Shown in pieces: positions 4,201-21,113 of a stretch of DNA of 64,000 bases. The notes below the pieces were generated by a model. That model worked only from the letters and a program-made list of their open reading frames with translations, had not been told where the DNA came from and ran no database searches. The stretch's first letter is position 1. Each line of letters begins with the position of its first letter. The position numbers and the translations under genes are program-made. The DNA comes from Dyella marensis (GTDB lineage Bacteria > Pseudomonadota > Gammaproteobacteria > Xanthomonadales > Rhodanobacteraceae): contig NZ_FONH01000006.1 in assembly GCF_900112865.1 (NCBI RefSeq), positions 1 to 64,000 of the forward strand, written 5' to 3'.

Positions 4201-5607
4201 TCAGTCGATCCCCAGCTTCTTCAGCTTGTAGCGCAAAGCGCGGAAGGTAATCCCCAGCTTCTTCGCCGCGGCGGTCTTGTTGTACCGCGACTCTTCCAGC
4301 GCCTTGATGATCGCCGTGCGCTCGATATTGCTGATGTAGTCGTCCAGGCCGCCGTCGGCGGTCGGTGCGGCTGCGGGTTGGGCTGGCGCGGGACTGGGGG
4401 CGGCCATTCCCGGTGGGGGTGGCGTGGCATCCGCGGCGCGCGGCAGGCGCTGGGGCAGCATCAGGTCGGCGAGGTCGATCTGCTCGCCTTCGCACATGGC
4501 CATGGCGCGCTCGAGGATGTTTTCCAGTTCGCGCACATTGCCGGGAAAGTCGTAGCTGTCCAGGGCCTGCTGTGCGGCCGGCAGCAGGCGGCCGGGATTG
4601 CCGCCGCTCTTGGCGGCGAGCTGGCGCAGGATGTAGCTGGCCAGCAGCGGCACGTCGCCGCGGCGTTCGCGCAGCGGCGGCACGCGCAGCTCGATCACGT
4701 TGATGCGGTAGAACAGGTCCTGGCGGAACTGGCCCTGCTCGACCAGCGCCGCGAGATTCTTGTGCGTGGCCGAAAGAATGCGCACGTCGACCGGGATTTC
4801 CTCGCGCGCGCCGATCGGGCGCACGGCCTTTTCCTGGATCGCGCGCAGCAGCTTCACCTGCATGTGCAGCGGCAGCTCGGCCACTTCGTCCAGGAACAGG
4901 GTGCCGCCGTTGGCGGCCTGGAACAGGCCTTCCTTGTCGCTCACCGCGCCGGTGAAGCTGCCCTTGCGGTGGCCGAAGAACTCGCTCTCCATCAGCTCGG
5001 ACGGGATCGCGCCGCAGTTCACCGGCACGAACGGGCCGGCCGCGCGGGGGCCCTGCTCGTGGATCAGGCGCGCGACCAGCTCCTTGCCCACGCCGGATTC
5101 GCCGGCGATGTACACCGGCGCCTGGTTGCGCGCGAGCTTGCCGATGGTGGCGCGCACCTGCTGCATCGCGGGCGAGTCGCCGATCAGGCGGTCCGCGGCG
5201 TTGGGCGCCTTGGCGGCGCCGCCGCCGGCGCGCTTCTCTTCGGCCAGGCGCAGCGCGGTGCGCACCAGCTGGCGCAGCATCTGGATATCCACCGGCTTGG
5301 AGACGAAATCGAAGGCGCCGGCCTTCAGCGCGCTCACCGCGGCGTCGACATTGCCGTAGGCGGTGATCATCGCCACCGGCGTGTCCGGGTGCTTGGCCGC
5401 GATCAGCTCGATCACCTCGTGGCCGTTGCCGTCGGGCAGGCGCATGTCGGTGAAGCAGAGGTCGTAGGTACGCTCTTCCAGGGCGCGTCGCGCATCCGCC
5501 ACCGTACCCACCGCATCGACCTGCAGGTCCATGCGACCCAGGGTGATGGTCAGCAGTTCGCGAATATCGCGCTCGTCGTCAATGACGAGGACGGTCTGTT
5601 GGCTCAT
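4201..5607 (-). CDS. pilR: PilR, sigma-54-dependent response regulator of type IV pili
   Basis: A 468-residue NtrC-class regulator. The receiver has Asp54 (CFTDMRLPDGNG). The AAA+ sigma-54 activator domain (about 140-380) has Walker A GESGVGKE, the sigma-54 contact loop ESEFFGHRKGSFTGA and Walker B GGTLFLDEVAEL. The C-terminal Fis-type helix-turn-helix (NKTAAAKKLGITFRALRYKL) follows a Pro/Ala-rich linker. The receiver wording (PVAMITAYGNVDAAV...KAGAFDFVSKPVD) and the C-terminus match PilR, which activates pilA transcription on phosphorylation by PilS. In relatives pilS and pilR are adjacent; here pilS lies about 13.8 kb away on the same strand and pilR sits 80 bp downstream of a sugar-operon esterase. 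No pilB or pilA is seen nearby. Confidence 0.92.
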   Translation of the reverse strand: MSQQTVLVIDDERDIRELLTITLGRMDLQVDAVGTVADARRALEERTYDLCFTDMRLPDGNGHEVIELIAAKHPDTPVAMITAYGNVDAAVSALKAGAFDFVSKPVDIQMLRQLVRTALRLAEEKRAGGGAAKAPNAADRLIGDSPAMQQVRATIGKLARNQAPVYIAGESGVGKELVARLIHEQGPRAAGPFVPVNCGAIPSELMESEFFGHRKGSFTGAVSDKEGLFQAANGGTLFLDEVAELPLHMQVKLLRAIQEKAVRPIGAREEIPVDVRILSATHKNLAALVEQGQFRQDLFYRINVIELRVPPLRERRGDVPLLASYILRQLAAKSGGNPGRLLPAAQQALDSYDFPGNVRELENILERAMAMCEGEQIDLADLMLPQRLPRAADATPPPPGMAAPSPAPAQPAAAPTADGGLDDYISNIERTAIIKALEESRYNKTAAAKKLGITFRALRYKLKKLGID

Positions 5608-5687
5608 GTCATCCAGCTGGGCGTCAGATGCGGGCTAGGATACCCGCCGCTTCCCCGAGGGGCAAAGCCTGCCGTCTTCACGCGTTT

Positions 5688-6752
5688 TCAGCGGCCCAGG
5701 CGGCGGTCGAAGAAGCGCCAGATCACCCGGTACGCGTCCTTCGATTCCGGCAGCTCCGGGTCGGAGAAGAAGGAGTGCCACATGCCCTCCCACAGGCGCA
5801 GCTCGGTGTCCACGCCGGCCCGGTCGAGCAGGGTCTGGCTGTGGATCACCGCGCTCATCGCCATGTCGCGCGTGCCGGAGATCAGCAGGGTGGGCGGGAA
5901 TTTCGCCAGCAGCGCCGGCGCATTGGCCGGAAACACCAGCGGGTCGGCGGCGCTGGCGCCCTTGAAATAGGGCAGGTCGTCCAGCTTCAGCGGCGCGCCC
6001 GGCACCGGCTTGCCGTTGAGCGGCGCGGCCAGGTACACCGAGTCGCCATCGAGATTGCTCAGCCCCGCGCAGAACATGCCGATCGCGCCGGGCACCGGCA
6101 CATGGTCGTGGATCAGCCGGGCCACCACTTCGCCGGTGAGCACGCCGCCGGCGGAGCAGCCGTAAATGCCTACGTCCGCAGGTTTGTACTGCTTGAGCAG
6201 CTCGCGATAGACCGCCACCACGTCGTCGGTGGCGGCGGGGAACACCTGCTCGGGGCCCTGGCGGTAATCGACGGTAATCACCTTCACGCGCCCCACGCCG
6301 GCGATGGGAATGGCCTCGACCAGCCCGCCGCTGTGCGCACCCCACAGGAAGGCGCCGCCGTGCAGGTTGATCAGCACGCGCTGCCGGTTCGCCGGCGCGA
6401 CGCCCTGCGCCGGCAGCACCACGTCGACTTTCACGCCGGCGATGGTGTCGGCGGCGATCTTCACGGGATAGAGCTTCTGCATCCGCGCGGCGCGGTCGCT
6501 GTTCATGCGGTCGTAGAACGCGCGGCTCTGCTCGATCGGGGCCGTGATCGGCGGTGCCTTGTCACCTTCGGTGAGCATCTTCGGGAAAAATGCGCGCGAT
6601 TCCGGCGAGGCGAAATGCGAGTACGGCACGCTGGCGCTGCCGAGGTCCACGCTGCCGTCGGGCCTGAAGCCCGCCGCGGACTGGGCGCAGGCGAGACCGG
6701 CGGCGCCCAGCAGCAAGGACGCGGCGAGGCAGGCAAGGCGGAAGCTGCGCAT
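5688..6752 (-). CDS. Secreted alpha/beta-hydrolase (HSL/family IV esterase-like)
   Basis: A 354-residue protein with a signal peptide (cleavage near ACAQS). The hormone-sensitive-lipase hallmarks are present: HGGAF (131-133, oxyanion hole), the nucleophile Ser200 in GCSAGG, and probable Asp and His in SGTRDMA and EGMWHSFF. I chose the start because AAGGA lies 9 nt before it; an in-frame ATG 27 nt upstream overlaps the trehalase stop (ATGA) but would put nine residues before the signal peptide. It is the last gene of the sugar operon. It may remove acetyl or other acyl groups from the sugar substrate before hydrolysis; that role is inference and the substrate is unknown. A weak hairpin (GCTTCCCCGAGGGG) lies between it and pilR. 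Confidence 0.82.
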   Translation of the reverse strand: MRSFRLACLAASLLLGAAGLACAQSAAGFRPDGSVDLGSASVPYSHFASPESRAFFPKMLTEGDKAPPITAPIEQSRAFYDRMNSDRAARMQKLYPVKIAADTIAGVKVDVVLPAQGVAPANRQRVLINLHGGAFLWGAHSGGLVEAIPIAGVGRVKVITVDYRQGPEQVFPAATDDVVAVYRELLKQYKPADVGIYGCSAGGVLTGEVVARLIHDHVPVPGAIGMFCAGLSNLDGDSVYLAAPLNGKPVPGAPLKLDDLPYFKGASAADPLVFPANAPALLAKFPPTLLISGTRDMAMSAVIHSQTLLDRAGVDTELRLWEGMWHSFFSDPELPESKDAYRVIWRFFDRRLGR

Positions 6753-6775
6753 GGCGAGAGGTCCTTGGCGTGGGC

Positions 6776-8458
6776 TCATTTCGCGGTTTCGGGGACGCGC
6801 GGCGTCGGCGCGGGCTCGGCCTTGTTCCGCTGCAGGATCTCCTGCAGCTTCAGATACACGCCATTGGTCCAGCCGAAGCCGATCACGTTCTCGCTGTAGC
6901 CGGCGCTGACGCGCACGTCGGCATTGCCCTTGGCCATGTTGTACTTCTCGCGGATGGTGCCGTCGTCGGCGAGGCCGCGGTCCACCGTGGCGGTGAAATT
7001 GCCGGCGAGGCGGCGCGCGTCGTCGTGGAAGCCGTAGTCCTCCAGGCCCTTGATCGCCAGCCAGTTGGTCGGCGCCCAGCCGAACGGATCGTTCCACTGC
7101 ACGCCGCTGGGCTGGTTGTCCATCGACAGGCCGCCGCGACGCTCGAACACCGCCAGCTTGCCGCGCACCGCCGCCGCCTGCTGCGGCGAGGCGGCGCCGG
7201 CCCACAGCGGATAGAAGGTGTTGATGTAGGGCGTGGGCGAGGGCTTGCCGGCGACGAAGTCGTAGTCGCGATACATGCCGTCGCCGGCGCGCCACAGGTA
7301 TTTGTCCATGGCCTGCTTGCGCGCGGCGGCGGCGTCGGTCCAGCGTTTCGCCTCGTCGCTCTTGCCCAGCTTCGTGGCGAAATCGGCCAGGTCCAGCTCG
7401 TAGCGATAGAGCAGGCTGTTGAGGTCTACCGAGGCGTAGTGATGCGTCGAACCGCCGAACGGGCCGAAGTGGAAATTGGTGTCGTAGCCCGATTCGCGCA
7501 TGGCGCGATCGCCGCGATAGTAGTCGGCGGTCAGGCGGTAGCCGTCGTGCCAGTTGCCCAGGCAGACCTTGGACGCGCGCACGTCGCAGCTGTCCTTGGC
7601 GAGGCGCGCGGCCTCGGCGTCATCCGGTTGCTGCGCACCTTTCAGCAGATAGCCCGGGTCGTCCTTCGGATGCGCGCGCAGCCACTTGATCACCTTCACG
7701 TAGAAGTCGTCGCTGTTCTGCGCCTCCAGCACCGGGCCGTCGCCGAGGTCGTAGTAGCGGGCGAGCCCGGTGTCGCCGGCGCGATGTTCCTCGCGCGTCC
7801 ACACGTCGTGGTTGCGCACCGCCAGCGGGTAGGCGCCGGCCAGCCAGGCCTTGCGTTCGGCGTCGGAGGCGAAGGCGTCCGGATCGCCGAGCACGGTGGC
7901 CATCATCGCGGTGAGGAAGGGGGGCTGCGAGCGGCTGAGGTAATAGGTGCGGTTGGCATTGAGCACGGCGCCGTAGTGCTCCACCTCGAACAGCGCATTG
8001 TCCACCATGTCGCGCGCCAGCTTGCCGCGCTGGTCGGCGGCCAGGCCCAGCACGATGAAATAGCTGTCCCAGCCGTACATTTCGTTGAAGAAGCCGCCGG
8101 GGACGACGTAGGGGTGGGGGAGGTAGAGCAGGCCCTGCGCGGGCAGCTTGGTGGCGTCGATGTCGCCGAGGCGCTGGATCGCGCGCGGGAGCGGGCGGAT
8201 GTCGACGCCGCAGCGCTTGCCGATGTCGGCCAGCGTGGATGGCACCTTCATCTCGGCCGGCACGTAGAGCACCGGGTGACCGGCGATCTTCGGGTCGGTG
8301 AGGGCGTTGCACTGGTCCTGCGAGCGGGTCAGCGTGGTCCAGGCCTGGTCGATGTAGGCGCGGGTTTTGGCGGGGTCGGGCGTTGCTGCCTGCGTGGCCG
8401 CGGCTGTGAAGATGGCCGCGAACAGAACGGCACGGAGCAAGTGGGGAGAGCGGGTCAT
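6776..8458 (-). CDS. Periplasmic trehalase-type glycoside hydrolase family 37
   Basis: A 560-residue GH37 protein with a signal peptide (TRSPHLLRAVLFAAIFTAAAT). Both trehalase signatures are recognisable: PGGFFNEMYGWDSYF and QWNDPFGWAP. The general acid Asp probably lies in RESGYDTNF and the base Glu in REKYNMAKG. GH37 enzymes hydrolyse trehalose to two glucose molecules; the signal peptide places this in the periplasm, as in E. coli TreA. I chose the start from a GAGGA sequence 8 nt upstream and the signal peptide; a start 15 codons earlier is open but lacks both. It lies between a secreted GH65 and an esterase. Trehalose is the expected substrate, but related alpha-1,1 or alpha-1,2 glucosides cannot be excluded. 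Confidence 0.9.
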   Translation of the reverse strand: MTRSPHLLRAVLFAAIFTAAATQAATPDPAKTRAYIDQAWTTLTRSQDQCNALTDPKIAGHPVLYVPAEMKVPSTLADIGKRCGVDIRPLPRAIQRLGDIDATKLPAQGLLYLPHPYVVPGGFFNEMYGWDSYFIVLGLAADQRGKLARDMVDNALFEVEHYGAVLNANRTYYLSRSQPPFLTAMMATVLGDPDAFASDAERKAWLAGAYPLAVRNHDVWTREEHRAGDTGLARYYDLGDGPVLEAQNSDDFYVKVIKWLRAHPKDDPGYLLKGAQQPDDAEAARLAKDSCDVRASKVCLGNWHDGYRLTADYYRGDRAMRESGYDTNFHFGPFGGSTHHYASVDLNSLLYRYELDLADFATKLGKSDEAKRWTDAAAARKQAMDKYLWRAGDGMYRDYDFVAGKPSPTPYINTFYPLWAGAASPQQAAAVRGKLAVFERRGGLSMDNQPSGVQWNDPFGWAPTNWLAIKGLEDYGFHDDARRLAGNFTATVDRGLADDGTIREKYNMAKGNADVRVSAGYSENVIGFGWTNGVYLKLQEILQRNKAEPAPTPRVPETAK

Positions 8459-8511
8459 GGGTGGGGTCCTCGCTTCGAGATTGCCTGTGTCCTCAGTCTT
8501 CAAACTTGAAC

Positions 8512-8654: not shown

Positions 8655-10928
8655 CTAGTTCGCCCGCTCCGTACGGGTGAGCTTCGCCTTGCCATCCGCA
8701 CCATGCTCGATGCGGATGTCATATTGCTTGCCGCGGTAATGCACACCCTGCAGCTTCAGCGATTTCCACGCCGGCGGCAGCACCGGCGCATACGCCTCGC
8801 TCAAGCCGTTGTCATCGATGCGCAGTCCGCTCAGCCCATACACGAAACTCTGCACGAAGCCAGCCGAAGTGGAGAGGATGTAACCGGCGTTGTTCGCCAC
8901 GGTCTCGGTACGCACATTGAACGGCGGCTTGAGAAAGCCGGCCAGGTTGCGATGGATCCACTCGCCCGCGGTCTTGCCGTCGCCAAGCTCGGCGGCGCCC
9001 ACCGCAAGCATCACCATCATCATTTCGTTCGGATCGTCGCCGTGCACCTTCAGCTCATGCAGCTGGAAGTCGAAGTTGTTGCGGCGGATCTGCGGGGTCA
9101 TCGGCAGGTCCAGGTTGGGATACATCAGCCAGATCAGCGACGAGCCCATCCAGGTGATCTTGTCGTGCGGCACCGAGGCGTCGAAGTCGAGATGGCGCTG
9201 ATTGGCCTCGTCGAACGGGATATACATCTTGGCGACGATCTCGCCCCACTTCGGATCCGCCGCCTCGCCCACCTGCTTCGCCGCCTCCTGTGCGATGCGC
9301 AGCGCCTTGCTCGCCGCGGCATTGGTGAAGGAGTCGTTCGGCACGTCGTTGTAGGCCTCGTCGGGCGAGGTGACGTGGTGGATCTCGTAGCGGTCGTGCG
9401 CCTTGTCGTAGGTGACGCGGCTGACCCAGAACCCGGCCACCTCGCGGATCACCGGCCAGCCGTACTGCTTCAGCCAGGCCTCGTCGCCGGTGGCCTGGTA
9501 GTACTGCCACTGGGCGATCGCCACGTCGGCGTTGACGTGGATCTCGCGGTACACGTCGTAGGCGAAGTGCGGCGTGTAGTCCTTGCCGGTCTCCGGGTCC
9601 GCTTCCCACGGATACATGGTGCCGCTGACGCCGTACTGCCTGGCGCGCTCGCGCGCCGGCTGCATGGTGCGGTGGCGGAACATCACGATCGGCTTGGCGC
9701 GCTCCGGATGCAGCAGGAGCAGGGCGGGGAACACCCAGGAGTCGCTGTCCCAGAACGCATGGCCGGCATAGCCCGGGGTCAGCGCGCAGGCGCCCATCGG
9801 CCAGGCGGTGCCGGTAGTGGAATTGGCCAGCAGGTAATAAAGGTCCGAATGCACGGCCTTCTGCACGGCCGGGTCGCCATCGACCACGATGTCCGACTTC
9901 CACAGCTCGTGCCACGCGGCCTTGTGCGCCGCCAGCAGCTGGTCGAAACCGGTGGCGCGCGCCTGCTTCGCCAGCGCCAGGGTGGTCTTGGCGTCGCCGC
10001 CCCAGCCCTGGCGCGACAGCGCGGCGTACTTGGTGAATGCGTAGGTGCGGCCCTTCTGCACGCGTGCCGTGACATTGAGCGAGATGCGGAACGGGGTCTT
10101 CTCCAGTTTCACGTCTTCGACTTTCAAGCCGGCCGGCAGGCTGACCGCGATGGCCTCGGCCATGTCCAGGCCCTGCTCGGCGCGGCCATCCAGCCACAGC
10201 GTGAGGTCCTTGGCATCGCCGTCATTGGCGACGATGCGCGTCACGCCGTGGTACCACACGGCGGCGCGGTCGGGCGTGGGCACGGGCTTGTTGTTGAGGT
10301 TCTGGCCGCTGGCGATCACCGACTCGATCATCTGGTCGCCGCTGAGCTTGCCGATCGGAAAGCGCGGGGCATGCTCGGACCACAGGCGGATCGGAAAGGT
10401 CAGCTGCACGCTGCCGTCGAACTGCGGCGTGATCGACAAGCGCGTCGCGGCGAGGTGGTGCGCATCCTGGCTGACGAACGTGGTGACCTTCACATCGGTG
10501 GACTTGTTGGCATAGACGAAGCGGTAGCGCGTGGCCAGCGTGGCGTCGCGCAGGTCGAGCGTCTGTGCGTAGTCGATGAAGATCTCCTTGCCCAGGCGGG
10601 TGGCGTTGAGCCAGCCGCCGCCGGGGTTGTAGTCGATCTCGCTCCAGCCCGGTATAGCCGCGGGGCGCGCGATATCGTCCTTGGCGTAGTCCATGAAGGC
10701 GACCATGTAGCCCATCGCCGGCTCGGTGCCGCGGGGCGAGGTCATGTTGGAGAAATAGCCGTTGGCGAGATAGCCGGGGAAGTAGCTGTCGAAGTCGGCC
10801 GAGCTGCCGGTGAGCACGAAGCTCGGATCGCTCCCGGCATCCTGCGCGGCGGCGGGGCCGGCGATGGCGAGCAGGAGCAGGCCGGCAAGGCCGGCGCGGC
10901 GAAAGCGATCTTTCATGGCTGGACCCAT
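8655..10928 (-). CDS. Secreted GH65 alpha-glucoside hydrolase (acid trehalase/kojibiose hydrolase-like)
   Basis: A 757-residue protein with a signal peptide ending at PAAAQ. The GH65 (alpha/alpha)6 barrel is recognised from FWDSDSWVFPALLLLHPE, MYPWEAD and the acid-loop HHVTSPDEAYND, where Glu is the presumed general acid. The phosphorylase signature that begins His-Asp-Ser in the cytosolic GH65 of this locus is absent; the corresponding region reads GDDPNEMMM. That favours a hydrolase over a phosphorylase, as in fungal acid trehalase and bacterial kojibiose hydrolases. Export also argues against a phosphorylase, since periplasm lacks useful phosphate-sugar capture. AAGGA lies 7 nt before the chosen ATG; an ATG directly before it is also possible. 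It starts 19 bp after the MFS gene. Exact linkage specificity is not determined. Confidence 0.85.
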   Translation of the reverse strand: MGPAMKDRFRRAGLAGLLLLAIAGPAAAQDAGSDPSFVLTGSSADFDSYFPGYLANGYFSNMTSPRGTEPAMGYMVAFMDYAKDDIARPAAIPGWSEIDYNPGGGWLNATRLGKEIFIDYAQTLDLRDATLATRYRFVYANKSTDVKVTTFVSQDAHHLAATRLSITPQFDGSVQLTFPIRLWSEHAPRFPIGKLSGDQMIESVIASGQNLNNKPVPTPDRAAVWYHGVTRIVANDGDAKDLTLWLDGRAEQGLDMAEAIAVSLPAGLKVEDVKLEKTPFRISLNVTARVQKGRTYAFTKYAALSRQGWGGDAKTTLALAKQARATGFDQLLAAHKAAWHELWKSDIVVDGDPAVQKAVHSDLYYLLANSTTGTAWPMGACALTPGYAGHAFWDSDSWVFPALLLLHPERAKPIVMFRHRTMQPARERARQYGVSGTMYPWEADPETGKDYTPHFAYDVYREIHVNADVAIAQWQYYQATGDEAWLKQYGWPVIREVAGFWVSRVTYDKAHDRYEIHHVTSPDEAYNDVPNDSFTNAAASKALRIAQEAAKQVGEAADPKWGEIVAKMYIPFDEANQRHLDFDASVPHDKITWMGSSLIWLMYPNLDLPMTPQIRRNNFDFQLHELKVHGDDPNEMMMVMLAVGAAELGDGKTAGEWIHRNLAGFLKPPFNVRTETVANNAGYILSTSAGFVQSFVYGLSGLRIDDNGLSEAYAPVLPPAWKSLKLQGVHYRGKQYDIRIEHGADGKAKLTRTERAN

Positions 10929-10947
10929 CATCGATTCCTTGCAGGCG

Positions 10948-12254: not shown

Positions 12255-12295
12255 CAAAAAACCGGCGGCCCGGGCTGTCGCGTGCCCGGACCGCC
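12255..12295 (-). terminator. Rho-independent terminator/attenuator after the TonB receptor gene
   Basis: On the minus strand GGCGGTCCGGGC pairs with GCCCGGGCCGCC over an 8-base loop (one G-U pair), followed at once by GG and six T. It stands 20 bp after the receptor stop and before the cotranscribed MFS gene, so it probably trims most transcripts after the receptor. Confidence 0.85.
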
Positions 12296-12314: not shown

Positions 12315-14858
12315 TTAGAAGTTGTACTTCACCTGGAAATTGACCTCGCGCCCTTCCAGCGGACGGGCCAGGATCACACCGTTGGAACCTGCCGCCGAAC
12401 CGAAGATACGCGAGTTGCTTTCGGTCAGGCCCAGCTCGTTGGTCATGTTGGTGCCCTGCAGGCGCAGTTCCCAGTGGTCCTGCACATTCGCCACCACGCC
12501 GAAGTCGAGCGTGTCGTAGGAACCCAGCTGCTGCAGGCCGGACAGGTCCTGGGTGTGCGCGCCGACGTGGGTATAGGTCACGAAGGCGGTGACATCGCCC
12601 CACGGGAACAGGAAGCGGTAGCTCGGCGTGAACATGTAGCGCACCTTCGGCTGGCGCTGCAGCTGCTTGCCGTTGATGAACGCGCAACCGTTGCCCGCCA
12701 CCTGGTTGACGTAGGGGATGCAGGCCGAATAGTGCGAGTAGTGGCCGTCGAGATAATTGGCCACCACCGCCAGCTTCAGGTTGTCGATCGGCATCACCGC
12801 GCCGCTGAGGTTGATGCCCTTGGAGTCGGAGCCGTACAGCAGCGGCGAGCCGACCGGCGCGCCGGCCGCATTGGTCGGCTGGTACGGCAGGCCGTTGAAC
12901 TGGCGGTGATACACGCTGATGTCGGCGTACAGCAGCTTGGACTGGTATTTGAAGCCGGCCTCGAAGTTCTGCACCTTCTGCAGCGGCGGCGTGTTGCCGG
13001 TGGTGTTGCCGCGCAGCGCGTTGTCGAAGTCGCCGAAGTGCACGCCCTTGTTGACGCGGCCGTACACGCTCATGTTGTCGGCCAGCGCGTAGTTCGCGCC
13101 GACCGTCCAGGAGGTGTGGGTCTTGTCGTACTTGGTGGTGGCGAAGGTGCCGTCGCACACCGGCACGGCGTTGTCATAGAGCGTCGCGTTGTTGCCGTCC
13201 AGGTTGACGTTGTGCAGGTTGCACACGTGCACGGTGGAGTCCTGGTTCTCCAGGCGGGCCGACACGTCGAAGATCCAGCGGTCGATCTTCCACACGTCGG
13301 AAAGATAGAACGCCTTGTTGGTGGAGGTGCCGTTCTCGGCGATGTTGTACGCGCCGTAGTCGAGGAAGCCCTGGTAGTCGGTGACCTGGTCGCCATTGGC
13401 GGCGACGACCTTGATCGGGCGCGCGTTCGGCGTGTTGGTCATCAGCATCTGGTTACCCAGCGCCCACTTGTCGTTCATCGTGTAGTGCGCCAGGTACAGG
13501 CCGGCGGTAAGCGTGTTGCCCTCGAACAGTTCCTTGCTGAGGCGGAAGTCGTTGTTGATGTTCTTCAGGCGCTTGTGGATGTACCACCAGCCCTGGTGGA
13601 TCACGCTCTGGTTCGGGTCGACCACGCCGCCGCCGTTGATGTAGCTGGCGGTGGCGCCAGGGGTCAGCTTCAGGCCGCCCAGGTCGGTGGAATTGTTATA
13701 GAGCACGTTGTCGAGCGTGTCTGGATTGGAGCCGGAGAACAGGGCATTGGTATCCATGTCGCCCTGGTCGATCAGGAACTTGTCGGAGATGCTCCAGCCG
13801 CCGTCGAGGTCATAGTCGAAGTTGCCGCCGAAGAAGCGCATCTTCGCGCCGCGGCCGTTGGCCAGGTTGGCGCTGGTGCCGCCGCCCGGATAGCCCGGCA
13901 GGTTGACGTGCTGGATGTACTTGCTGTTGTAGGTGTCGGTGAGCGGATCGAAGCCCGGGTACGCCGAGAAATTGTCGCTGCCGCGCTGGAGCAGCGGGAT
14001 CGGCGTGATGAACTGGTTGCGGTCGTTGAGCACGCGGGTCCACAGCACCAGCGAGCCTTTCTCCATGGTGTGCGACAAGGTGGCGGTGAACTGGCCGCCC
14101 TTGTCGGCGGCGAACTGCGGATCGCGCACGCCGTCGGACTTGCGCCAGAAACCGCCCACGCTGCCGAACCAGTCGTCGGCGACCTTGAAGCCGAGGAAGC
14201 CGTCGGTGCGCCACAGGCCTTCGTTGCCGTAGGTGACGCCGATGCTGCCGGACGGCTTGGCCGTGCCCTGCTTGAGCATGAAGTTGGCGGTGGCGCCGAT
14301 CTGGCCGTCGCCGAACACCACGGACGGGCCGCCCTGCAGGATTTCCACGCGCTCGACGGTGTCGTCGAGGCGGAACATCGAGGTGGTTTCCATGAACGAC
14401 AGCGTGGGCATGCCGTACAGCGGCGAGCCCATGATCTGCGTGGTGAAGTAGGGCGCGTCGCCGCCGCCCGGGAAGCCGGCGATCTCGATATTGGCGCCGG
14501 TCTGGCCGCCGGTGGATTCCGGCCACAGGCCGGGCGAGATCTTCAGCAGGTCCGCGGTGCTCTTCGGGTTGGCCTGCTTGATCGCCTCGGCATCGGCCGC
14601 GGTGATCGAATAGGCCGCGTCGATCTTGCGGATGCCGCCGATGGTCGGCGTACCGGTGACCACCACCTGTTCCAGCGTCTTGGTGTCTTTCTTGCCCTGC
14701 GGCGGCGCGGGCGGCAGCGGCGCGGGCGGCGCCGGGTTCTGCTGCGCGGCGGCCGGCGCGCTGTTCTGCGTCGTGTCCTGGGCCTGCGCCGTGCCGAGCA
14801 TAAGTGCCGTGGCGATGGCCGCGGCGAGCAACTGTCGAGTGATGCCTTGGCGATGCAT
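12315..14858 (-). CDS. TonB-dependent outer-membrane receptor of the sugar locus
   Basis: An 847-residue receptor with a signal peptide (LLAAAIATALMLGTAQAQ), a Pro/Ala-rich spacer (about residues 40-62), a plug starting at LEQVVVTGTP, and a 22-strand barrel ending in VNFQVKYNF with terminal Phe. GGAGG lies 7 nt before the ATG; a TTG six bases earlier is not needed. It starts 32 bp after the phosphorylase-mutase gene and is the second gene of the LacI-faced operon. It should carry the alpha-glucoside (trehalose, kojibiose or a larger oligosaccharide) across the outer membrane. The substrate assignment comes only from its neighbours. Confidence 0.9.
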   Translation of the reverse strand: MHRQGITRQLLAAAIATALMLGTAQAQDTTQNSAPAAAQQNPAPPAPLPPAPPQGKKDTKTLEQVVVTGTPTIGGIRKIDAAYSITAADAEAIKQANPKSTADLLKISPGLWPESTGGQTGANIEIAGFPGGGDAPYFTTQIMGSPLYGMPTLSFMETTSMFRLDDTVERVEILQGGPSVVFGDGQIGATANFMLKQGTAKPSGSIGVTYGNEGLWRTDGFLGFKVADDWFGSVGGFWRKSDGVRDPQFAADKGGQFTATLSHTMEKGSLVLWTRVLNDRNQFITPIPLLQRGSDNFSAYPGFDPLTDTYNSKYIQHVNLPGYPGGGTSANLANGRGAKMRFFGGNFDYDLDGGWSISDKFLIDQGDMDTNALFSGSNPDTLDNVLYNNSTDLGGLKLTPGATASYINGGGVVDPNQSVIHQGWWYIHKRLKNINNDFRLSKELFEGNTLTAGLYLAHYTMNDKWALGNQMLMTNTPNARPIKVVAANGDQVTDYQGFLDYGAYNIAENGTSTNKAFYLSDVWKIDRWIFDVSARLENQDSTVHVCNLHNVNLDGNNATLYDNAVPVCDGTFATTKYDKTHTSWTVGANYALADNMSVYGRVNKGVHFGDFDNALRGNTTGNTPPLQKVQNFEAGFKYQSKLLYADISVYHRQFNGLPYQPTNAAGAPVGSPLLYGSDSKGINLSGAVMPIDNLKLAVVANYLDGHYSHYSACIPYVNQVAGNGCAFINGKQLQRQPKVRYMFTPSYRFLFPWGDVTAFVTYTHVGAHTQDLSGLQQLGSYDTLDFGVVANVQDHWELRLQGTNMTNELGLTESNSRIFGSAAGSNGVILARPLEGREVNFQVKYNF

Positions 14859-14890
14859 GGTCAAACCTCCCCACCCATGATGTCGGGCTT

Positions 14891-17800
14891 TTATGTGGCG
14901 ATATCGCTGGCCGCTTCCCCTGAGGCGGCGCGCGACGCTTCTTCACTGCTGATGAAATCCTCGATGCGGAACGCGCTCAGTCCGGGCAGCACGGTCTCGG
15001 CCTGGGCCAGCGCGGACGGCTGGCCGATGCCGACGGCGGCCATGCCGGCGGCGTGGATGCTGGCGACACCCGCGGCGGCGTCTTCCACGCCCAGGCAGGC
15101 GGCGGGCGCTACGCCCAGTCCGGCGGCCGCGGCCAGGAAGATCTCCGGGTCGGGCTTGGAGCGCTGGATATGCGCGGCGTCCACGATGTAGTCGAACAGA
15201 TGGGCCACGCCGAGCCGCTCCAGCAGCAGCGGCGCATTGCGGCTGGCCGAGGCCAGGCCGACCTTGAGGCCGGCCGCGCGCACCGCGGCGATCGCCGCGC
15301 GCGCGCCGGGCAGCAGCTGGTCCGGCCCGAAGCGCTGGATCTGTTCGCGGTAGTAGTCGTTCTTGCGCTCGCCGAGGGCGAGTTTTTCCTCGGCGCTGTA
15401 CGCGCGGCCGGCGCGTTCGAGCAGGATGTCCAGCGAACCCATGCGATCCACGCCCTTGAGGCGCTCGCCGATCGAGGCATCGAACGGCAGGCCCGTTTCC
15501 TGTGCCAAGCGCCGCCACGCGGCGTCGTGCACCACGGCGGTGTCGGCGATCACGCCGTCGAGATCGAAGATCACCGCCTGCAGCGCCGGCTGCGGCGCGC
15601 GGCGGTTGGGAATGGCGTCGGCGCGCGGCAGGCGCAGCGTCTGGCCGGCATGGATGGTGTGTTCGCGGCCGTCGTGGCGAAACGCCAGCGTGTCGCCGCG
15701 CAGCAGCGTGTAGCGCACGCCGGATGCATCCACTTCCACGCGCAGCTGCGCGCGGCCCCAGCGCAGGCCGAAGCGATAGCCGTGCCACGCGGCGGGCAGG
15801 CGCGGCGCCAGCGCCGGCTGGCCATCGATCGTGCGGAAACCGCCGAAGCCCCATACCAGCCCCAGCCAGCTGCCCGCCATCGCTGCCATGTGCACGCCGT
15901 GCGCGGCGTTGCCGTGCGAGTCGTCCAGGTCCACCCGCAGGCTGTCCTGGAAATAGCGCCAGGCCTTGGCGGCCAGGCCCACTTCCGCGGCGATCACGCC
16001 GAAGGTGGAGGCGGACAGGGTGGAGTCGTGCACGGTGACGCTTTCGTAGTAGTCGAAGTTGCGCCGCTTGGCCGCGCGCTCCACGCCGTCGCCGGCCAGC
16101 ATCAGGGCGAGCAGGGTGTCGGCCTGCTTGCACACCTGATGGCGATAGATGGTCAGCGGATGCAGGCGCAGCAGCAGCGGATGCTTGCCGTCGCCGGGCT
16201 TGGCCGCGAGGTGATCGGGCAGGCGCGGACGGTCGAGGAAGCCGTCGTCCTGCGGGAACACGCCCAGGCGCGGATCTTCCGGCAGGTACATCGCCTCGGC
16301 GGCGCGGCGCCATTGCGCGACTTCGTCCTCGCCCAGGCCGATGCGCGCGCACAGCGCGCCATATTCCACCGGCGCGGCGCCGGCCATCCACAGCGCGGTG
16401 GCGGCCGCGTCGCGCAGGTGCCGCTGCGCCATGCGGTTGGTGTAGTGGTTGTTGTCGACCAGGGCGGAGTATTCGTCCGGCCCGGTCACTTCGTGGATGC
16501 AGAAGGCGTCGCCGCGACGCGCATTGAAGTGGCCGATGTCCAGCCACACGCGTGCGGTCTCGAACAGGATCTCGGCGCCGTGGTCGCGCAGGAAATCGGT
16601 GTCGCCGCTGGCGTCCACGTACAGGCTGATCGCCCAGGCGATCGCCGCATTGATGTGGTACTGCGCCGAGCCGCCGGGATAGTAGGCCGAGCACTCGTCG
16701 CCGCTGATCGTGCGCCAGGCGTACAGCGCGCCGCGCGGATGATTGAGTTCGCGCGCATGCCGGCGCGAGCGGTCGAGGATGCGGTGGCGGTACAGCAGCA
16801 TGCCGCGCGCCAGCTCCGGCGCGACCGTGGCGAGCACCGGCAGGATGAAGGCCTCGGCATCCCAGAAGTAGTGGCCTTCGTAGCCCTCGCCGGTGAGGCC
16901 TTTCGCCGCCGCGCTGCCCTGGCCGTCGCGGCAGCTGGACTGGAACAGGTGGAACAGGTTGAAGCGCAGCGCCTGCTCAGTGGCGGCGTCGCCGTCGATG
17001 GCGAGGTCGGCGCCGTCCCACAGCGGAGCCAGTGCCTGGCGCTGGCGTTCCAGCAGGCCGGCGTAGCGCAAGTGGGCGGCGGCCTCGAGGATGCCGCGGG
17101 TGCGCGCGAGCAGCGCGTCGTCCGCATCGTCGCCGTGCGGCTCGGTCCAGGCATAGGCGACGTATTTCTCCAACGTCACCGCCTGGCCCGGCGTCAGCAT
17201 GCCGGTGTAGCTGTGCACCACGCCGTGCTGGGCGAGGTTGGCGAAGTGGCAGTCGAGGCCGCCGTCCTGCGCGCGATGCGCCTGCGCGCAGGCGAGGCGG
17301 ATGCCGCTGTGCGTAGTCTGCTGGCGCACCCAGGCGAAGTCCGGTTCGGCCGCGGCGTCGACGGTGTGCAGGCCGCCGTCCAGGCGCGTGCCGATGCGCG
17401 GATCGTCGCCCTGTTCGGCGGCGTCGCGCGCGGTGCTGATCGCGGATTCCAGGGTGACCGGGCCGGTGTAGTCCACCGAGCGCACGCGATAGCGCAGCGC
17501 CAGCAGGCCGGGTTCGTCCAGGCTTACGATGCGCTCGGCTTCGATCTCCAGCGTTTCGCCGGCCGGCGAACGCCAGCGCAGGAAGCGGCGGTAGCAGCCT
17601 TCGCGCAGATCGAGCCGGCGCTCGAAATCCAGCCATTCGCCCTCGGCCAGGCGCACCGGCACGTCGCCCAGGCGCAACTGGATGCGGGTGGCGTCGGCCA
17701 CCGGGATGCGCGTGTCGGTGTGCGCGGCGAAGCCGGGAAAGCGCTCGTGGTACTCGATCGGAGTGCGTTCCCACGCTGCCGACAGGAAGCTCGCCTGGCT

Positions 17801-18001
17801 GGGGCTGTCGCCTTCTTCCAGGCCGCCGCGCACGCCCAGGGCGCCATTGGCCAGGGCGAACAGGCTTTCGTCCTGCGCGAAGCCGGCCGGGTCGGTGCCG
17901 CGGCGGATCAGGGTCCAGGGATCGGTCATGCCCGTGCCCACCCCGGAGGTGGGCACGACATCGACGGCCGCGGCGGGCGCGGAGGCAAGGCGGTCGAGCA
18001 T
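14891..18001 (-). CDS. GH65 disaccharide phosphorylase fused to beta-phosphoglucomutase
   Basis: A 1036-residue cytosolic fusion. Residues about 25-790 are a GH65 phosphorylase (YYPGGSAQYH, EVTGPDEYSALVDNNHYTN with the general-acid Glu, HQVCKQADTL, and the phosphate-binding motif VHDSTLSAST). Residues about 810-1020 are a HAD beta-phosphoglucomutase (FDLDGVIADT with the nucleophile Asp, GLASASRN, RSKPDPEIF, GVEDAAAG). Together they would convert an alpha-glucosyl disaccharide plus phosphate to glucose and beta-glucose 1-phosphate, then glucose 6-phosphate. Kojibiose, trehalose, maltose and nigerose are all possible substrates. The chosen ATG has GGGGA 4 nt upstream; the farthest upstream ATG lies inside the operator and is unlikely. 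MTDPWTLIRR at 17929, the usual family start, is an alternative. It is first in the operon. Confidence 0.88.
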   Translation of the reverse strand: MLDRLASAPAAAVDVVPTSGVGTGMTDPWTLIRRGTDPAGFAQDESLFALANGALGVRGGLEEGDSPSQASFLSAAWERTPIEYHERFPGFAAHTDTRIPVADATRIQLRLGDVPVRLAEGEWLDFERRLDLREGCYRRFLRWRSPAGETLEIEAERIVSLDEPGLLALRYRVRSVDYTGPVTLESAISTARDAAEQGDDPRIGTRLDGGLHTVDAAAEPDFAWVRQQTTHSGIRLACAQAHRAQDGGLDCHFANLAQHGVVHSYTGMLTPGQAVTLEKYVAYAWTEPHGDDADDALLARTRGILEAAAHLRYAGLLERQRQALAPLWDGADLAIDGDAATEQALRFNLFHLFQSSCRDGQGSAAAKGLTGEGYEGHYFWDAEAFILPVLATVAPELARGMLLYRHRILDRSRRHARELNHPRGALYAWRTISGDECSAYYPGGSAQYHINAAIAWAISLYVDASGDTDFLRDHGAEILFETARVWLDIGHFNARRGDAFCIHEVTGPDEYSALVDNNHYTNRMAQRHLRDAAATALWMAGAAPVEYGALCARIGLGEDEVAQWRRAAEAMYLPEDPRLGVFPQDDGFLDRPRLPDHLAAKPGDGKHPLLLRLHPLTIYRHQVCKQADTLLALMLAGDGVERAAKRRNFDYYESVTVHDSTLSASTFGVIAAEVGLAAKAWRYFQDSLRVDLDDSHGNAAHGVHMAAMAGSWLGLVWGFGGFRTIDGQPALAPRLPAAWHGYRFGLRWGRAQLRVEVDASGVRYTLLRGDTLAFRHDGREHTIHAGQTLRLPRADAIPNRRAPQPALQAVIFDLDGVIADTAVVHDAAWRRLAQETGLPFDASIGERLKGVDRMGSLDILLERAGRAYSAEEKLALGERKNDYYREQIQRFGPDQLLPGARAAIAAVRAAGLKVGLASASRNAPLLLERLGVAHLFDYIVDAAHIQRSKPDPEIFLAAAAGLGVAPAACLGVEDAAAGVASIHAAGMAAVGIGQPSALAQAETVLPGLSAFRIEDFISSEEASRAASGEAASDIAT

Positions 18002-18076
18002 GTATTCCCCGGCAATCTTGTGATTGTTCTCGGCGGGGGCGCTCGGGCGCCTGCCGGTCCATTGGGGGCGGAGCTT

Positions 18077-18122
18077 CGCAGCAAATGATATCGATATCAA
18101 GATATCGATATCATTTGCTGCG
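18077..18122. promoter_or_regulatory. LacI-family operator: 46-bp palindrome with two tandem cores
   Basis: Perfect 22-bp inverted arms separated by AA. Inside it are two 12-bp cores, each GATATCGATATC with the central CG typical of LacI-family operators, centred 14 bp apart. It lies in the divergent region between the phosphorylase-mutase gene (76 bp away) and lacI (180 bp away), so the LacI encoded here should bind it and control both directions. Two overlapping dimer sites at this spacing are unusual. Confidence 0.88.
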
Positions 18123-18279
18123 GCGCAGAATCACGCGGCTTTGAGCCGGGCTGCCGCAGGCTCGCCGGCGCTACAGCGGGCAGGCCTGACGGGGGCGGCG
18201 TCTCGGCCATCTGTTGGACGCATGGGGCGCAAATCGACACACTGCGCGTTGCTGCGGATGCATCCCCAGGAGCACAGCA

Positions 18280-18306
18280 ATGGAACTGGCCGAGGCCCGG
18301 TCTTGA
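18280..18306 (+). CDS. Eight-codon upstream ORF coupled to lacI
   Basis: Starts ATG-GAA-CTG with AGGAG placed 7 nt upstream, encodes MELAEARS and stops at a TGA that overlaps the TTG start of lacI (TTGA). The SD is better than lacI's own. It may couple translation into lacI, or it may be the true beginning of lacI separated from the rest by a one-base frameshift. Both are inference. Confidence 0.4.
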   Translation: MELAEARS

Positions 18307-19313
18307 GTCGCAAACGAAAACCCGCCCGACCCGGGGCGCCGGCCAACCTCACCATGGCGGACCTGGCCAAGCTGGCCGGGGTATCCAAGATCACCGTCTC
18401 GCGCGCGCTCAGCGACAGTCCGCTGGTCAACCAGGAGACCCGCGAGCGCATCCAGGACCTGGCGCGCGAGCAGGGCTACAAGCTCAACGTCAGCGCGCGC
18501 AACCTGCGCCTGCGCCGCAGCCATACGGTGGCGGTGATCGTGGAGATGAAGCCCAGCAACGACCGCACCATGTTCGATCCGTATCCGCTGATGCTGCTGG
18601 GCGGCATCTCGCAGGAGCTCACCGCGGCCGGCTACAGCGTGCTGCTGACCACCCGCCAGGGCGCCAGCGCCGCGGCGGTGCAGGCGGCCGACGGCATGAT
18701 CCTGCTCGGCCAGGGCGTGCGGCAGGACGCGGTGCGCCGCTTCGACAAGCTGGGCCTGCCGATGGTGGTGTGGGGCGCGCAGGGCGATCACGACGACCAC
18801 GTGGTCGTCGGCAGCGACAACCGTCAGGGCGGGCGCGCGGTGGCCGCTCATTTCATCGGACTGGGACGGCGCAATCCGGTGTTCGTCGGCAACCCCGGGC
18901 ATCCGGAAATCTTCGAGCGCCTGAGCGGCTTCGTGGATGCGCTGGCCGAGCACGGCGTGAAGCCGCTGCTGATCCGCCGCGACGAATTCACCCTCGCCTC
19001 CGGCATGGACGCGGTGCAGTCGCTGGCCGCGCGCCACGTGAGCTTCGACGCGTTGTTCGCCTGCAGCGACCTGCTGGCGATGGGCGCGGTGCGCGCGCTG
19101 GAGGAACTGGGCCGCCGCGTGCCGCGCGACGTATCGGTGGTGGGCTACGACGACATGCCACTGGCGGCCAGCTTCCAGCCGCCGCTCAGCTCAGTGCGCC
19201 AGGACTGGCAGGAGGGCGGCAGCCTGCTGGCACGCAAGATGCTGGCGATGATCCGCGACGAGGCGGCGCAGTCCGAAGTGCTGCCGGTGAATCTGATCGT
19301 CCGCGCGACGTAG
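18303..19313 (+). CDS. LacI-family transcriptional regulator of the sugar locus
   Basis: A 336-residue regulator. The N-terminal helix-turn-helix reads MADLAKLAGVSKITVSRALSD and the hinge YKLNVSARNLRLRRS; the periplasmic-binding-protein-like sensor domain follows (DGMILLGQGV, VVGSDNRQGG, FACSDLLAMGAVRAL, SVVGYDDMPLAAS). I chose TTG because it places the helix-turn-helix at the usual distance, is preceded by GAGG at 7 nt and gives the normal family length. It is divergent from the sugar operon and separated from it by the double palindrome. The effector is probably the disaccharide or a derived glucose phosphate. Its stop codon lies inside the family B palindrome shared with pilS. Confidence 0.9.
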   Translation: MSRKRKPARPGAPANLTMADLAKLAGVSKITVSRALSDSPLVNQETRERIQDLAREQGYKLNVSARNLRLRRSHTVAVIVEMKPSNDRTMFDPYPLMLLGGISQELTAAGYSVLLTTRQGASAAAVQAADGMILLGQGVRQDAVRRFDKLGLPMVVWGAQGDHDDHVVVGSDNRQGGRAVAAHFIGLGRRNPVFVGNPGHPEIFERLSGFVDALAEHGVKPLLIRRDEFTLASGMDAVQSLAARHVSFDALFACSDLLAMGAVRALEELGRRVPRDVSVVGYDDMPLAASFQPPLSSVRQDWQEGGSLLARKMLAMIRDEAAQSEVLPVNLIVRAT

Positions 19314-19459
19314 CGCCGTAGGTTGGGGTGAGCGCAGCGAACCCCAACGAACCTCGCACGCCACCTCACGCTTAATGGGCTGATTGACTGGATGCAGGGT
19401 GCGGCAATCGGATACGTCCGTTGGGGTTCGCTGCGCTCACCCCAACCTACGGCGCTACG
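19309..19459. repeat. Family B inverted pair, copy 2: 41-bp perfect arms covering two stop codons
   Basis: Arms 19309-19349 and 19419-19459 are perfect reverse complements (41 bp) around a 69-bp spacer. The left arm contains the lacI stop TAG and the right arm, by symmetry, the pilS stop. It is the longest and most exact family B copy here and should terminate transcription from both sides. Confidence 0.92.
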
Positions 19460-21113
19460 GCGCTGCGATGGCATCGCTGCCCGGCACCCGCGCGGGCGGC
19501 GTCAGCACCAGGCGGAAGCAGCTGCCGCCGCCGGCGACGCGTACGTATTCCAGCGAGGACTGGTTGGCCTCGGCCATCTGGCGCGCCAGGTACAGGCCGA
19601 GTCCGGTGCCGTATTCGTGCGTCGTATAGAACGGTTCGAAAATCTGCGCGGCGACCTTCGGCGCGATGCCCGGGCCGCGATCGATCACTTCAAGAATCGG
19701 CACGCCATGCTCGCCATGGCGCGCCACCACCATCACCCGCGCCGGTTCGCCCGGCATGCGCCCATAGCGCAGCGCGTTCTGCACCAGGTTCCACACCACT
19801 TGCTGCAGCTGCTGCGGGTCGGCCACCGCGGCGACCGGTTCGCTGCCGTTGCTGATCACCCGCAGGGTGTCGTTGCCCAGGTCGTTGCCCTGGCGGTATT
19901 CGTCGACGAAGTTCTCGGCCCAGCGACCCAGGTCCAGCGTCTCCGGGCGCGAGCGCTCGCGCCGCGACAGCTGCAGGATGTTTTCGATGATGTCGTTCAG
20001 GCGCACGCAGTGGTTGTTGATGATCTCCACCATGCGCAGGTCGGTGCCGCCGAGGTCGCGCGATTCGGCCAGCAGCTGGGCCGAGTAGCGGATCGCCGCC
20101 AGCGGGTTGCGGATCTCGTGCGCGATCGAGGCGGACAGGCGGCCCAGCGAGCTGAGCGTCAGTTCTTCCGCGCGGCGCGAGACCAGCGAGGTGTCGTCGA
20201 GGAAGATCAGCACCAGGGCGTCGTCGTTCGGCGCCAGGCGGCTGAAGCGCGGGACCACTTCCGGCACGCCGTCGGCCAGCTGGGTGGCGGTTTCGTCGAG
20301 CTTGCCCGAGGTGGTCCAGTGGTACAGGCGACGCGACAGCTCGGGCGCGACGCGGCCGAGGTCGCGCTGGTCCGCACTGGGATTGCCCAGCAGCATCCAC
20401 GCCGATTCGTTGATCTGGTGGATGTGGTTGGCGTCGTCGACCAGCATCACGCCGGTCTTCATGCGGCGGATGATCAGCTCGTTGACCTGGGCCAGGTTGG
20501 CCAGGTCGATGCTGCGCTGCTCGGCCAGCGCCTCGCTGGCGCGCAGCTGGCGGCTCAGCACGTAGCACAGCATGGTGATGGCGAAGTAGGCCAGGCCGAA
20601 CAGCCCGGCCTCCAGCAGCTGGCGGTCGGCCACGCTGGCATCGCCCTGCGGGTTCAGCAGCGAGTGCCCGAGCATCCCTAAGGTGGCCAGCGCGGCGAAG
20701 AACAGCGCCAGGCGCAGCGGCAGCAGCAGCGCGCCGGCGGCCAGGTTCACCGCCAGCATCATGGCGATGCCGATGCGCGCGTCCTGCATGGCGCCGGTGG
20801 CCAGCACCGCGGCGACGATGTCGATCACCAGCGAGGCGGAGGTGACCAGCCGGGTCCACGGCATGGTGCGCCGGGTCAGCGCGGCGACCGCGATGGCGAA
20901 GCCCAGGAAGCACAGCGCGACCAGGCGCGCGGTGTCCGTGTCGTTCAGGTGCGGCCAGCCCAGCGCGGGCGGGCTGAAGGCCAGGCCGGCATAGACCAGC
21001 GCCTGCGCCAGCCGGAAATAGTTGAGGAAGAACAGCTCGTGGCGCACGGCCTCGGTGGCGGCGCGGGAGGGGGCGAAGGCGGGCGGCGCGGTATGGGGCA
21101 CGGGGCCTGGCAC
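19455..21113 (-). CDS. pilS: PilS, sensor histidine kinase of type IV pili
   Basis: A 552-residue kinase with about six N-terminal membrane helices (residues about 28-195), a PAS-like domain (about 215-320) and a HisKA/HATPase core. The phospho-acceptor is His332 in [22 protein letters not shown]; the N box is [10 protein letters not shown] and the ATP-lid motifs DRGPGIA and [16 protein letters not shown]. The [16 protein letters not shown] opening and [11 protein letters not shown] wording are PilS-like. It phosphorylates PilR in response to pilin levels in the membrane. The GTG start is uncertain; a second GTG lies four codons on. A -10-like TATACT stands just upstream. It is next to sucC, as in relatives, but pilR does not follow it. 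Confidence 0.88.

What the first reader, a model, noticed from the sequence alone, without database searches (positions are those of the whole stretch)
4201..21113. The pilS-pilR pair is split by a 13.8-kb sugar-utilisation locus
PilS and PilR are normally adjacent and cotranscribed, and sucCD beside pilS is the usual order in Xanthomonadales. Here both genes are complete and on the same strand, but an intact lacI, TonB receptor, MFS, two secreted hydrolases, an esterase and a phosphorylase-mutase fusion lie between them. The simplest reading is insertion of a sugar cassette into the pilSR operon.
Basis: partly seen in the sequence, partly recalled or inferred. Interest (0 to 1): 0.7.

Follow-up and report, generated by a model that had tools for sequence, protein, structure and literature searches.

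The report
Trehalose-type sugar operon between pilS and pilR
In this Dyella-like bacterium and many of its relatives, a self-contained sugar-use operon sits between the two genes of a pilus control pair, just upstream of the second gene's own promoter-like element, while other close relatives have that same spot empty.

Summary
In detail: pilS (19455-21113) and pilR (4201-5607) are intact and lie 13,847 nt apart, with lacI and six sugar-operon genes between. "Insertion into the pilSR operon" is partly right. Outgroups mostly have the pair adjacent, so the sugar genes came later. But it is not peculiar to this genome: of 150 family genomes with both genes placed, 61 are split on one strand, all 61 with the same GH65-mutase gene in the gap; 72 are adjacent. 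Presence and absence change at least 14 times on an rpoB tree of 76 genomes. One adjacent relative clearly, and two more probably, keep scraps of lacI or the esterase, so adjacency there is a loss. pilR has its own conserved promoter-like element (50 of 53 filled loci); the cassette ends a median 19 nt before it. Two genomes of another family carry the cassette free-standing. It looks like a LacI-controlled trehalose-type locus whose tandem operator occurs nowhere else in the genome. No terminator-like site was found between esterase and pilR (42 loci), so sugar-driven read-through into pilR is possible but unproven. A fixed, repeatedly filled and emptied site: a new variant of a known kind.

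The parts
4201..5607 (-). pilR: sigma-54 response regulator, intact
   Evidence: Pfam Response_reg, Sigma54_activat, HTH_8; next relatives in own genome 37-42% identity over parts
5637..5667 (-). conserved promoter-like element of pilR (CTTTGC, 19 nt, TATCCT), about 29 nt before the ATG
   Evidence: pattern in 50 of 53 filled loci, 0 in 200 shuffles; also in 6 of 38 other rows; rows printed
5688..6752 (-). esterase/lipase (GCSAG-type hormone-sensitive lipase family), signal-like N-terminus by eye; last cassette gene, 80 nt before pilR
   Evidence: Pfam Abhydrolase_3, NCBIfam NF058650 505.9 bits over cut-off 410, PDB PMGL2; searches used one codon less
6776..8458 (-). GH37 trehalase-family hydrolase, signal-like N-terminus by eye
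   Evidence: Pfam Trehalase E 8.1e-98; below the NCBIfam trehalase cut-offs
8655..10916 (-). GH65 hydrolase, kojibiose-hydrolase-like, signal-like N-terminus by eye
   Evidence: Pfam GH65; best NCBIfam KJHdlse 339.8 bits, below cut-off 800; PDB 7fe3
10948..12210 (-). MFS transporter
   Evidence: Pfam MFS_1
12264..12295 (-). terminator-like stem-loop after the TonB receptor gene
   Evidence: 12-pair stem plus T run (13 such sites found in the region against 8.4 in shuffles); terminator-like in 15 of 48 relatives' TBDR-MFS gaps against 2 of 200 random segments
12315..14858 (-). TonB-dependent receptor
   Evidence: Pfam Plug and TonB_dep_Rec_b-barrel
14891..18001 (-). GH65 phosphorylase fused to beta-phosphoglucomutase; motif partly trehalose-phosphorylase-like
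   Evidence: Pfam GH65 N/m/C and HAD; TIGR01990 bPGM 229.6 bits over cut-off 189.4; specificity positions read by hand
18086..18113 (.). tandem LacI-type operator (two near-identical 14-nt palindromes)
   Evidence: only place in the genome at up to 1 mismatch
18300..19313 (+). lacI-family regulator, divergent from the GH65 fusion, convergent with pilS
   Evidence: Pfam LacI, Peripla_BP_3
19455..21113 (-). pilS: sensor kinase with PilS six-helix domain, intact
   Evidence: Pfam 6TM_PilS, HisKA, HATPase_c
21506..23555 (+). sucC-sucD, conserved neighbours of pilS
   Evidence: same order in most relatives' loci that reach that far

Best explanation
The short spacer between pilS and the pilR promoter is a fixed site that holds, in many genomes of this family, a self-contained LacI-controlled alpha-glucoside (probably trehalose) utilisation operon. 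Shown: the pair is adjacent in most outgroups; the cassette lies between the pilS stop and the pilR promoter-like element; it is at this site in 11 genus codes; it was lost by deletion in at least one relative and probably in two more; presence and absence switch many times. Inferred: it entered long ago, then was passed on partly by descent and partly by exchange between relatives through the flanking genes (no mobility gene seen), and it persists because it leaves pilS, the pilR promoter and pilR untouched. The operon would work by TonB-dependent uptake, secreted or periplasmic hydrolysis (GH37, GH65, esterase), MFS import and phosphorolysis to beta-glucose-1-phosphate, turned into glucose-6-phosphate by the fused mutase, under LacI at the tandem operator. 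PilR would be made from its own promoter, perhaps with some read-through from the sugar operon.
For: 61 of 61 split genomes carry the GH65 fusion in the gap; of 72 adjacent ones 61 lack it and 11 have it elsewhere (150 of 197 surveyed genomes had both positions listed). Named records: of the best 80 pilS loci, 51 filled, 21 adjacent, 6 contig ends, 2 other. Scraps in adjacent genomes: lacI in G001 (score 50, shuffled maximum 30), esterase in G114 (39 against 34), weaker in G076 (37 against 36). Promoter-like element in 50 of 53 filled loci. Last cassette gene to CTTTGC: median 19 nt, IQR 15-27, n 48. At least 14 changes on rpoB, 76 genomes. Free-standing copies at other places in the family and in two genomes of family f2. 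Operator found once in the genome.
Against: No donor, insertion sequence or target duplication was seen; the way of entry is unproven. Three genomes of g5 and g26 have pilS and pilR far apart or on opposite strands without the cassette, so separation can have other causes. No long exchanged tract shows in pilS or pilR. Nine compact adjacent genomes in four genera share a junction type of their own, which neither simple loss nor simple gain explains. Cassette trees agree with rpoB in 0.65-0.68 of quartets (lacI, GH65 fusion) against 0.80-0.81 for pilS/pilR. In one search chance protein hits reach E 5e-4, close to the 2.7e-4 of the G114 scrap. The 47 uncounted genomes are mostly distant ones, so proportions are not for the whole family. 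The sugar rests on motifs.
Confidence: 0.7

Rival explanations
1. One ancient insertion in the ancestor of the core clade, strictly vertical since then, with a dozen or so independent losses.
For: The GH65 fusion groups mainly by genus; scraps point to loss in one to three relatives; in every filled locus mapped that reaches pilR, the last cassette gene reads into pilR; state needs fewer changes than any of 500 shuffles.
Against: Nine compact adjacent genomes in g1, g10, g14 and g19 share a different junction and show no scrap (some too short to test); losses would have to rebuild the same compact junction repeatedly. Cassette quartets agree less with rpoB than pilS/pilR do.
Confidence: 0.2
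2. A hot spot: a free-standing cassette was inserted independently many times at the same place.
For: Free-standing copies exist; in G117 and G139 the GH65HAD-TBDR block is inverted and its GH65HAD groups with g9 free-standing copies; in f3 genome G049 other genes lie between pilS and pilR.
Against: 61 of 61 split genomes hold the same cassette type, with similar end-to-promoter spacing and the same orientation of the last genes; genus-wise grouping of the cassette.
Confidence: 0.2
3. The arrangement is selected because pilR became the last cistron of a sugar-controlled operon: inducing the operon raises PilR and so links feeding to pili.
For: Esterase stop to pilR ATG is 63-95 nt in 37 of 42 loci, and 0 of 42 have a terminator-like site there; the LacI operator marks this operon alone.
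Against: pilR keeps its own promoter-like element; a terminator-like site after TBDR may stop most operon transcripts; many relatives do without the cassette; the esterase is fragmentary in some filled loci; close spacing may only reflect compact genomes.
Confidence: 0.25
4. The separated order is ancestral and adjacency is derived, or the gene here is another NtrC-type regulator.
For: Within genus g1 the separated order does look older (G001 scrap).
Against: Adjacency in outgroup genera and in several other families; no closer pilR relative in the genome.
Confidence: 0.04

Closest known systems
PilS-PilR two-component system of type IV pili (recalled from Pseudomonas and Xanthomonas)
   Same: Domain make-up of both proteins; sucCD beside pilS in most family loci seen
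   Different: Genes split by the cassette in 61 of 150 placed family genomes; pilR has its own promoter-like element
Trehalose phosphorylase of GH65
   Same: GH65 domains; R, I, P, P at positions 392, 394, 416, 585 as in the TRIGPP motif of the confirmed enzyme TbGP (PMC8537180: abstract, Results and legends read)
   Different: Position 64 reads E and 402 reads A (hand-read across gaps); fused to a beta-phosphoglucomutase; activity untested
Kojibiose hydrolase (GH65)
   Same: Best NCBIfam model for the second GH65, and PDB 7fe3 its best chain
   Different: Well below the cut-off, 339.8 of 800 bits
Chromosomal integration hot spots without mobility genes, flanked by core genes (recalled; the one paper search returned none)
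   Same: Same flanks, variable presence, no integrase seen
   Different: One cassette type in 61 of 61, rather than varied cargo

Membership tests
PilS-PilR two-component system | PilS: six-helix PilS membrane domain, HisKA and HATPase | tested here: met
   PF25323, PF00512, PF02518
PilS-PilR two-component system | PilR: receiver, sigma-54 AAA+ domain, Fis-type HTH | tested here: met
PilS-PilR two-component system | genes adjacent | tested here: not met
   13,847 nt apart; this is a habit of order, not of function
PilS-PilR two-component system | controls pilA | not testable with these tools
   needs expression data
GH65 trehalose phosphorylase | three GH65 domains | tested here: met
   PF03636, PF03632, PF03633
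GH65 trehalose phosphorylase | six specificity positions of the trehalose group | tested here: inconclusive
   4 of 6 agree with TRIGPP; 64 and 402 do not; read by hand
GH65 trehalose phosphorylase | activity on trehalose | not testable with these tools
   no assay
Integration hot spot between core genes | same flanks filled in some and empty in other relatives | tested here: met
   61 filled, 72 empty of 150
Integration hot spot between core genes | varied unrelated cargo | tested here: not met
   GH65 fusion in 61 of 61; gene content varies only in part
Integration hot spot between core genes | tRNA site or integrase | tested here: not met
   window only, ORFs scanned

The most novel reading that the evidence does not exclude
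In the filled genomes pilR has swapped its upstream partner: it is the last cistron behind a LacI-controlled trehalose operon, so sugar supply tunes PilR dose, while filled and empty alleles of this junction have been kept side by side across several genera with two distinct junction haplotypes.
Probability: 0.22. Interest if true: 0.68.

Novelty: new variant of a known kind. Interest (0 to 1): 0.45.

Why it matters
It shows that a kinase-regulator pair can be held 3-25 kb apart in many relatives with both genes kept, probably because the regulator has its own promoter. That warns against relying on gene adjacency alone to pair kinases with regulators. The site also gives natural pairs of filled and empty strains with which to ask whether an inserted metabolic operon alters the control of pili.

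Tried and rejected
Long allele replacement carrying empty sites between genera: identity windows along pilS and pilR showed no long tract. In g19 the two junction types differ clearly only in the first 30-60 nt of pilR; in g14 lower identity runs to about 180 nt, but its two compact genomes are the deepest branch there on pilR. Scraps in all empty sites: G001 and G114 stood out; G076 barely passed its shuffled maximum (37 against 36), but matches the esterase end in place; G099 scored z 3.3 but only equalled its shuffled maximum, at inconsistent places. Five sites were too short to test. Composition as evidence of recent entry: no clear anomaly. Inverted repeat in the pilR promoter spacer: slight excess (4.36 against 3.79 pairs), not pursued. 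The junction-type patterns were written after seeing the rows, so those counts describe and do not test. Papers: of eight searches, 26, 27, 49 and 80 bear on pilS-pilR; their listings and abstract starts showed nothing on a pair split by sugar genes in this family. Only PMC8537180 was opened (abstract, Results, legends and tables). Structure prediction was not used.
Full report
WHAT IS THERE. The window holds, from pilR to pilS: pilR 4201-5607, esterase 5688-6752, GH37 6776-8458, GH65 8655-10916, MFS 10948-12210, TonB receptor 12315-14858 and GH65-beta-phosphoglucomutase fusion 14891-18001 on minus, lacI 18300-19313 on plus, pilS 19455-21113 on minus, then sucC and sucD on plus. Start codons were chosen by me from the look of the N-termini.

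IS IT REALLY pilS AND pilR. PilS has the Pfam six-helix PilS domain; PilR has the receiver, sigma-54 and Fis-HTH domains. In the own genome the next relatives of pilR have 37-42% identity over parts of it. pilR was found in 56 of 61 and pilS in 57 of 61 genomes of a first sample, and in 183 and 188 of 197 genomes of the family sample, one each except two pilS matches in G213.

HOW COMMON IS THE SPLIT. The listings of the family sample are cut at the lower end; with rows added, 150 of 197 genomes had both positions. Of these, 61 are split by 3.2-24.9 kb on one strand, 72 are adjacent (64-355 nt between matches), 4 lie at 0.7-1.9 kb, 10 are on different contigs, 1 is far apart and 2 are on opposite strands. 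The last three, of g5 and g26, lack the fusion: separation without the cassette exists too. The GH65 fusion (85 of 197 genomes at E<=1e-150) lies in the gap in 61 of 61 split genomes, in three of them (G117, G139, G159) on the other strand. Of the 72 adjacent genomes 61 lack it and 11 carry it elsewhere. Split genomes fall in 11 genus codes. The 47 genomes left out are mostly distant ones.

NAMED RECORDS. A pilS search of named genomes kept the best 80 of 165 loci, with 10 kb on each side at most. I called 51 filled (lacI or the GH65 fusion beside pilS and no adjacent pilR; pilR itself was in reach in only one), 21 adjacent, 6 ended by the contig and 2 other. These genomes probably overlap with the unnamed sample. 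Filled ones include Dyella japonica, Dyella jiangningensis, Fulvimonas soli, Rhodanobacter thiooxydans and Rhodanobacter lindaniclasticus; adjacent ones include Dyella subtropica, Dyella silvae, Rhodanobacter panaciterrae, Rhodanobacter fulvus, Frateuria terrea and all six Luteibacter-labelled records. The nearest named record to the window's pilS is Dyella sp. SG609 (99%), so the window is most likely from a Dyella.

WHICH STATE IS OLDER. Genera outside the core clade (g2, g11, g12, g24, g25, g15, g9 and others) are adjacent in most placed genomes, and so are several other families of the order. On an rpoB tree rooted on g24, filled genomes lie in the core clade and in g13, with empty ones scattered among them (parts of this tree are weakly supported). 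The fewest state changes are 14 on rpoB (76 genomes), 15 on pilR (82) and 16 on pilS (79); 500 shuffles need 22-25 on average and at least 17, 16 and 18. So the state is clustered on the tree, but it changes often. Such counts cannot tell gain from loss.

SIGNS OF LOSS. In the adjacent genome G001, of the same genus as the window, the end of lacI is still readable next to pilS (protein match E 2.7e-5; DNA score 50, shuffled mean 22.8, maximum 30 of 40). In G114 an in-place piece of the esterase end remains before pilR (protein E 2.7e-4 where unrelated chance hits reach 4.7e-4; DNA score 39, shuffled maximum 34). In G076 the same is likely but weaker (37 against a maximum of 36). In the split genome G022 only the GH65 fusion was found between pilS and pilR, with an esterase-like tail seen by eye. 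No convincing scrap was found in the other empty sites tested; five were too short.

TWO JUNCTIONS. Upstream of pilR, 50 of 53 filled loci have CTTTGC, 18-20 nt, TATNCT, ending 28-32 nt before the ATG; 200 shuffles gave none. The loci are related, so these are not 53 independent cases, and four of the 53 (G032, G080, G185, G205) have pilS on another contig. Read as TTGCCC-17-TATCCT the element resembles a sigma-70 promoter; that reading is mine, and the simple promoter scan did not list it. Of 38 other rows (including G020 with a broken contig and G009, G030, G034 with distant genes) 6 have it, among them G001, G114 and G076. Nine adjacent genomes in g1, g10, g14 and g19 have instead a box TAGTA(A/C)CCT or AAGTAACCT, and eight of them a PilR that begins MSAQ, MTAQ or MTVQ (counts by patterns written afterwards). 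I read this as an old filled allele and an old empty allele whose flanks have been mixed by recombination; other histories are not excluded, and one search shows no long exchanged tract.

WHERE EXACTLY IT SITS. The last cassette gene stops a median 19 nt before the CTTTGC box (IQR 15-27, range -64 to 277, n 48; the three negative values presumably come from esterase frames in which my walk met no stop). Esterase stop to pilR ATG is 63-95 nt in 37 of 42 loci, 125-224 in five, and none of the 42 has a terminator-like site there. In the window a terminator-like stem lies after the TonB receptor; 15 of 48 relatives have one in that gap, against 2 of 200 random segments.

THE CASSETTE. The core is lacI, GH65 fusion, TonB receptor, MFS and usually the esterase; one or two GH65 hydrolases and GH37 come and go, and a TPR-2OG-oxygenase gene was identified in two loci. 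Copies with no pilS or pilR in the stretch fetched occur in g9, g12, g13, g15, g22, g24 and g25 (a weak 29% kinase match in G082 and G190 is not pilS) and in two genomes of family f2, there with an esterase. So the esterase belongs to the sugar unit, not to pilR. Quartet agreement of trees on filled genomes (chance one third): pilS-pilR 0.85; rpoB with pilS or pilR 0.80-0.81; rpoB with GH37 0.72-0.73, esterase 0.69, lacI 0.67-0.68, GH65 fusion 0.65, MFS 0.64-0.65, TonB receptor 0.57-0.59, GH65 hydrolase 0.53-0.55; lacI with the fusion 0.80-0.82. The GH65 fusion groups mostly by genus, with exceptions (g22 in two groups; G117 and G139 with g9). I read this as descent with some exchange; paralogous GH65 hydrolases lower the value of that gene.

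WHAT IT PROBABLY DOES. The fusion matches maltose and kojibiose phosphorylases and beta-phosphoglucomutases in the PDB. At the six positions used by De Beul and colleagues (PMC8537180) I read E, R, I, A, P, P from the alignment to kojibiose phosphorylase, with the help of the maltose phosphorylase alignment where the first is gapped: four agree with the TRIGPP of a confirmed trehalose phosphorylase, two do not. With GH37 beside it, trehalose is the likeliest sugar; kojibiose or another alpha-glucoside remains open. The regulator site is a tandem palindrome; its 10-mer GATATCGATA occurs in 53 of 61 lacI-fusion intergenic stretches, free-standing copies included, and the site occurs only here in the genome.

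VERDICT. This is an old, repeatedly filled and emptied site for one sugar operon, placed so that it spares the pilR promoter. Coupling of sugar supply to PilR is an attractive, untested possibility. Interest 0.45.

Noticed in passing
L109/L110 (G117), L111/L126 (G139): In filled genomes G117 and G139 the GH65 fusion and TonB receptor are inverted and lie on the other side of lacI; their fusion groups with free-standing g9 copies. In G139 the gap also holds melibiase-like (GH36), GH125 and GH127 genes.
   Followed up: partly
L020:5285-7105 (-) and L111:6164-8215 (-): An extra gene in two of the filled gaps encodes TPR repeats fused to a 2OG-Fe(II) oxygenase domain.
   Followed up: no
L041:3100-12100 (G049); L042 (G058): In family f3 pilS and pilR are also apart; in G049 a hybrid histidine kinase and chaperone-usher pilus genes lie between them. 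The content in G058 was not annotated.
   Followed up: partly
L040:2833-7304 (G046): In G046 a pilin gene lies between pilR and pilS.
   Followed up: no
L100 and L212 (G080): In G080 the cassette runs into pilR on one contig, but pilS with sucCD lies on another, with no clear cassette gene downstream of it (only a partial 33% lacI-like match): a further rearrangement or misassembly.
   Followed up: partly
L114 (G131) and L116 (G206): Free-standing cassettes of two different genus codes (g25, g24) are nearly identical in the GH65 fusion (branch lengths 0.000 and 0.001), on contigs of about 14 kb: recent transfer or a binning error.
   Followed up: no
L034:2112-3706 (G017): pilS of G017 matches in two overlapping pieces in different frames, so it may be broken or hold a sequencing error.
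   Followed up: no
window 24304-27393: A chaperone-usher pair (PapD, usher) follows sucCD in the window.
   Followed up: no
window 5637-5667 and equivalents: The spacer between the two pilR promoter boxes shows a slight excess of inverted repeats (4.36 against 3.79 pairs); it might be an operator or chance in GC-rich DNA.
   Followed up: partly
L103 (G116), L128 (G205), L095 (G170), L105 (G177): The esterase is fragmentary or frame-split in these filled loci, although its remains still sit just before pilR.
   Followed up: no
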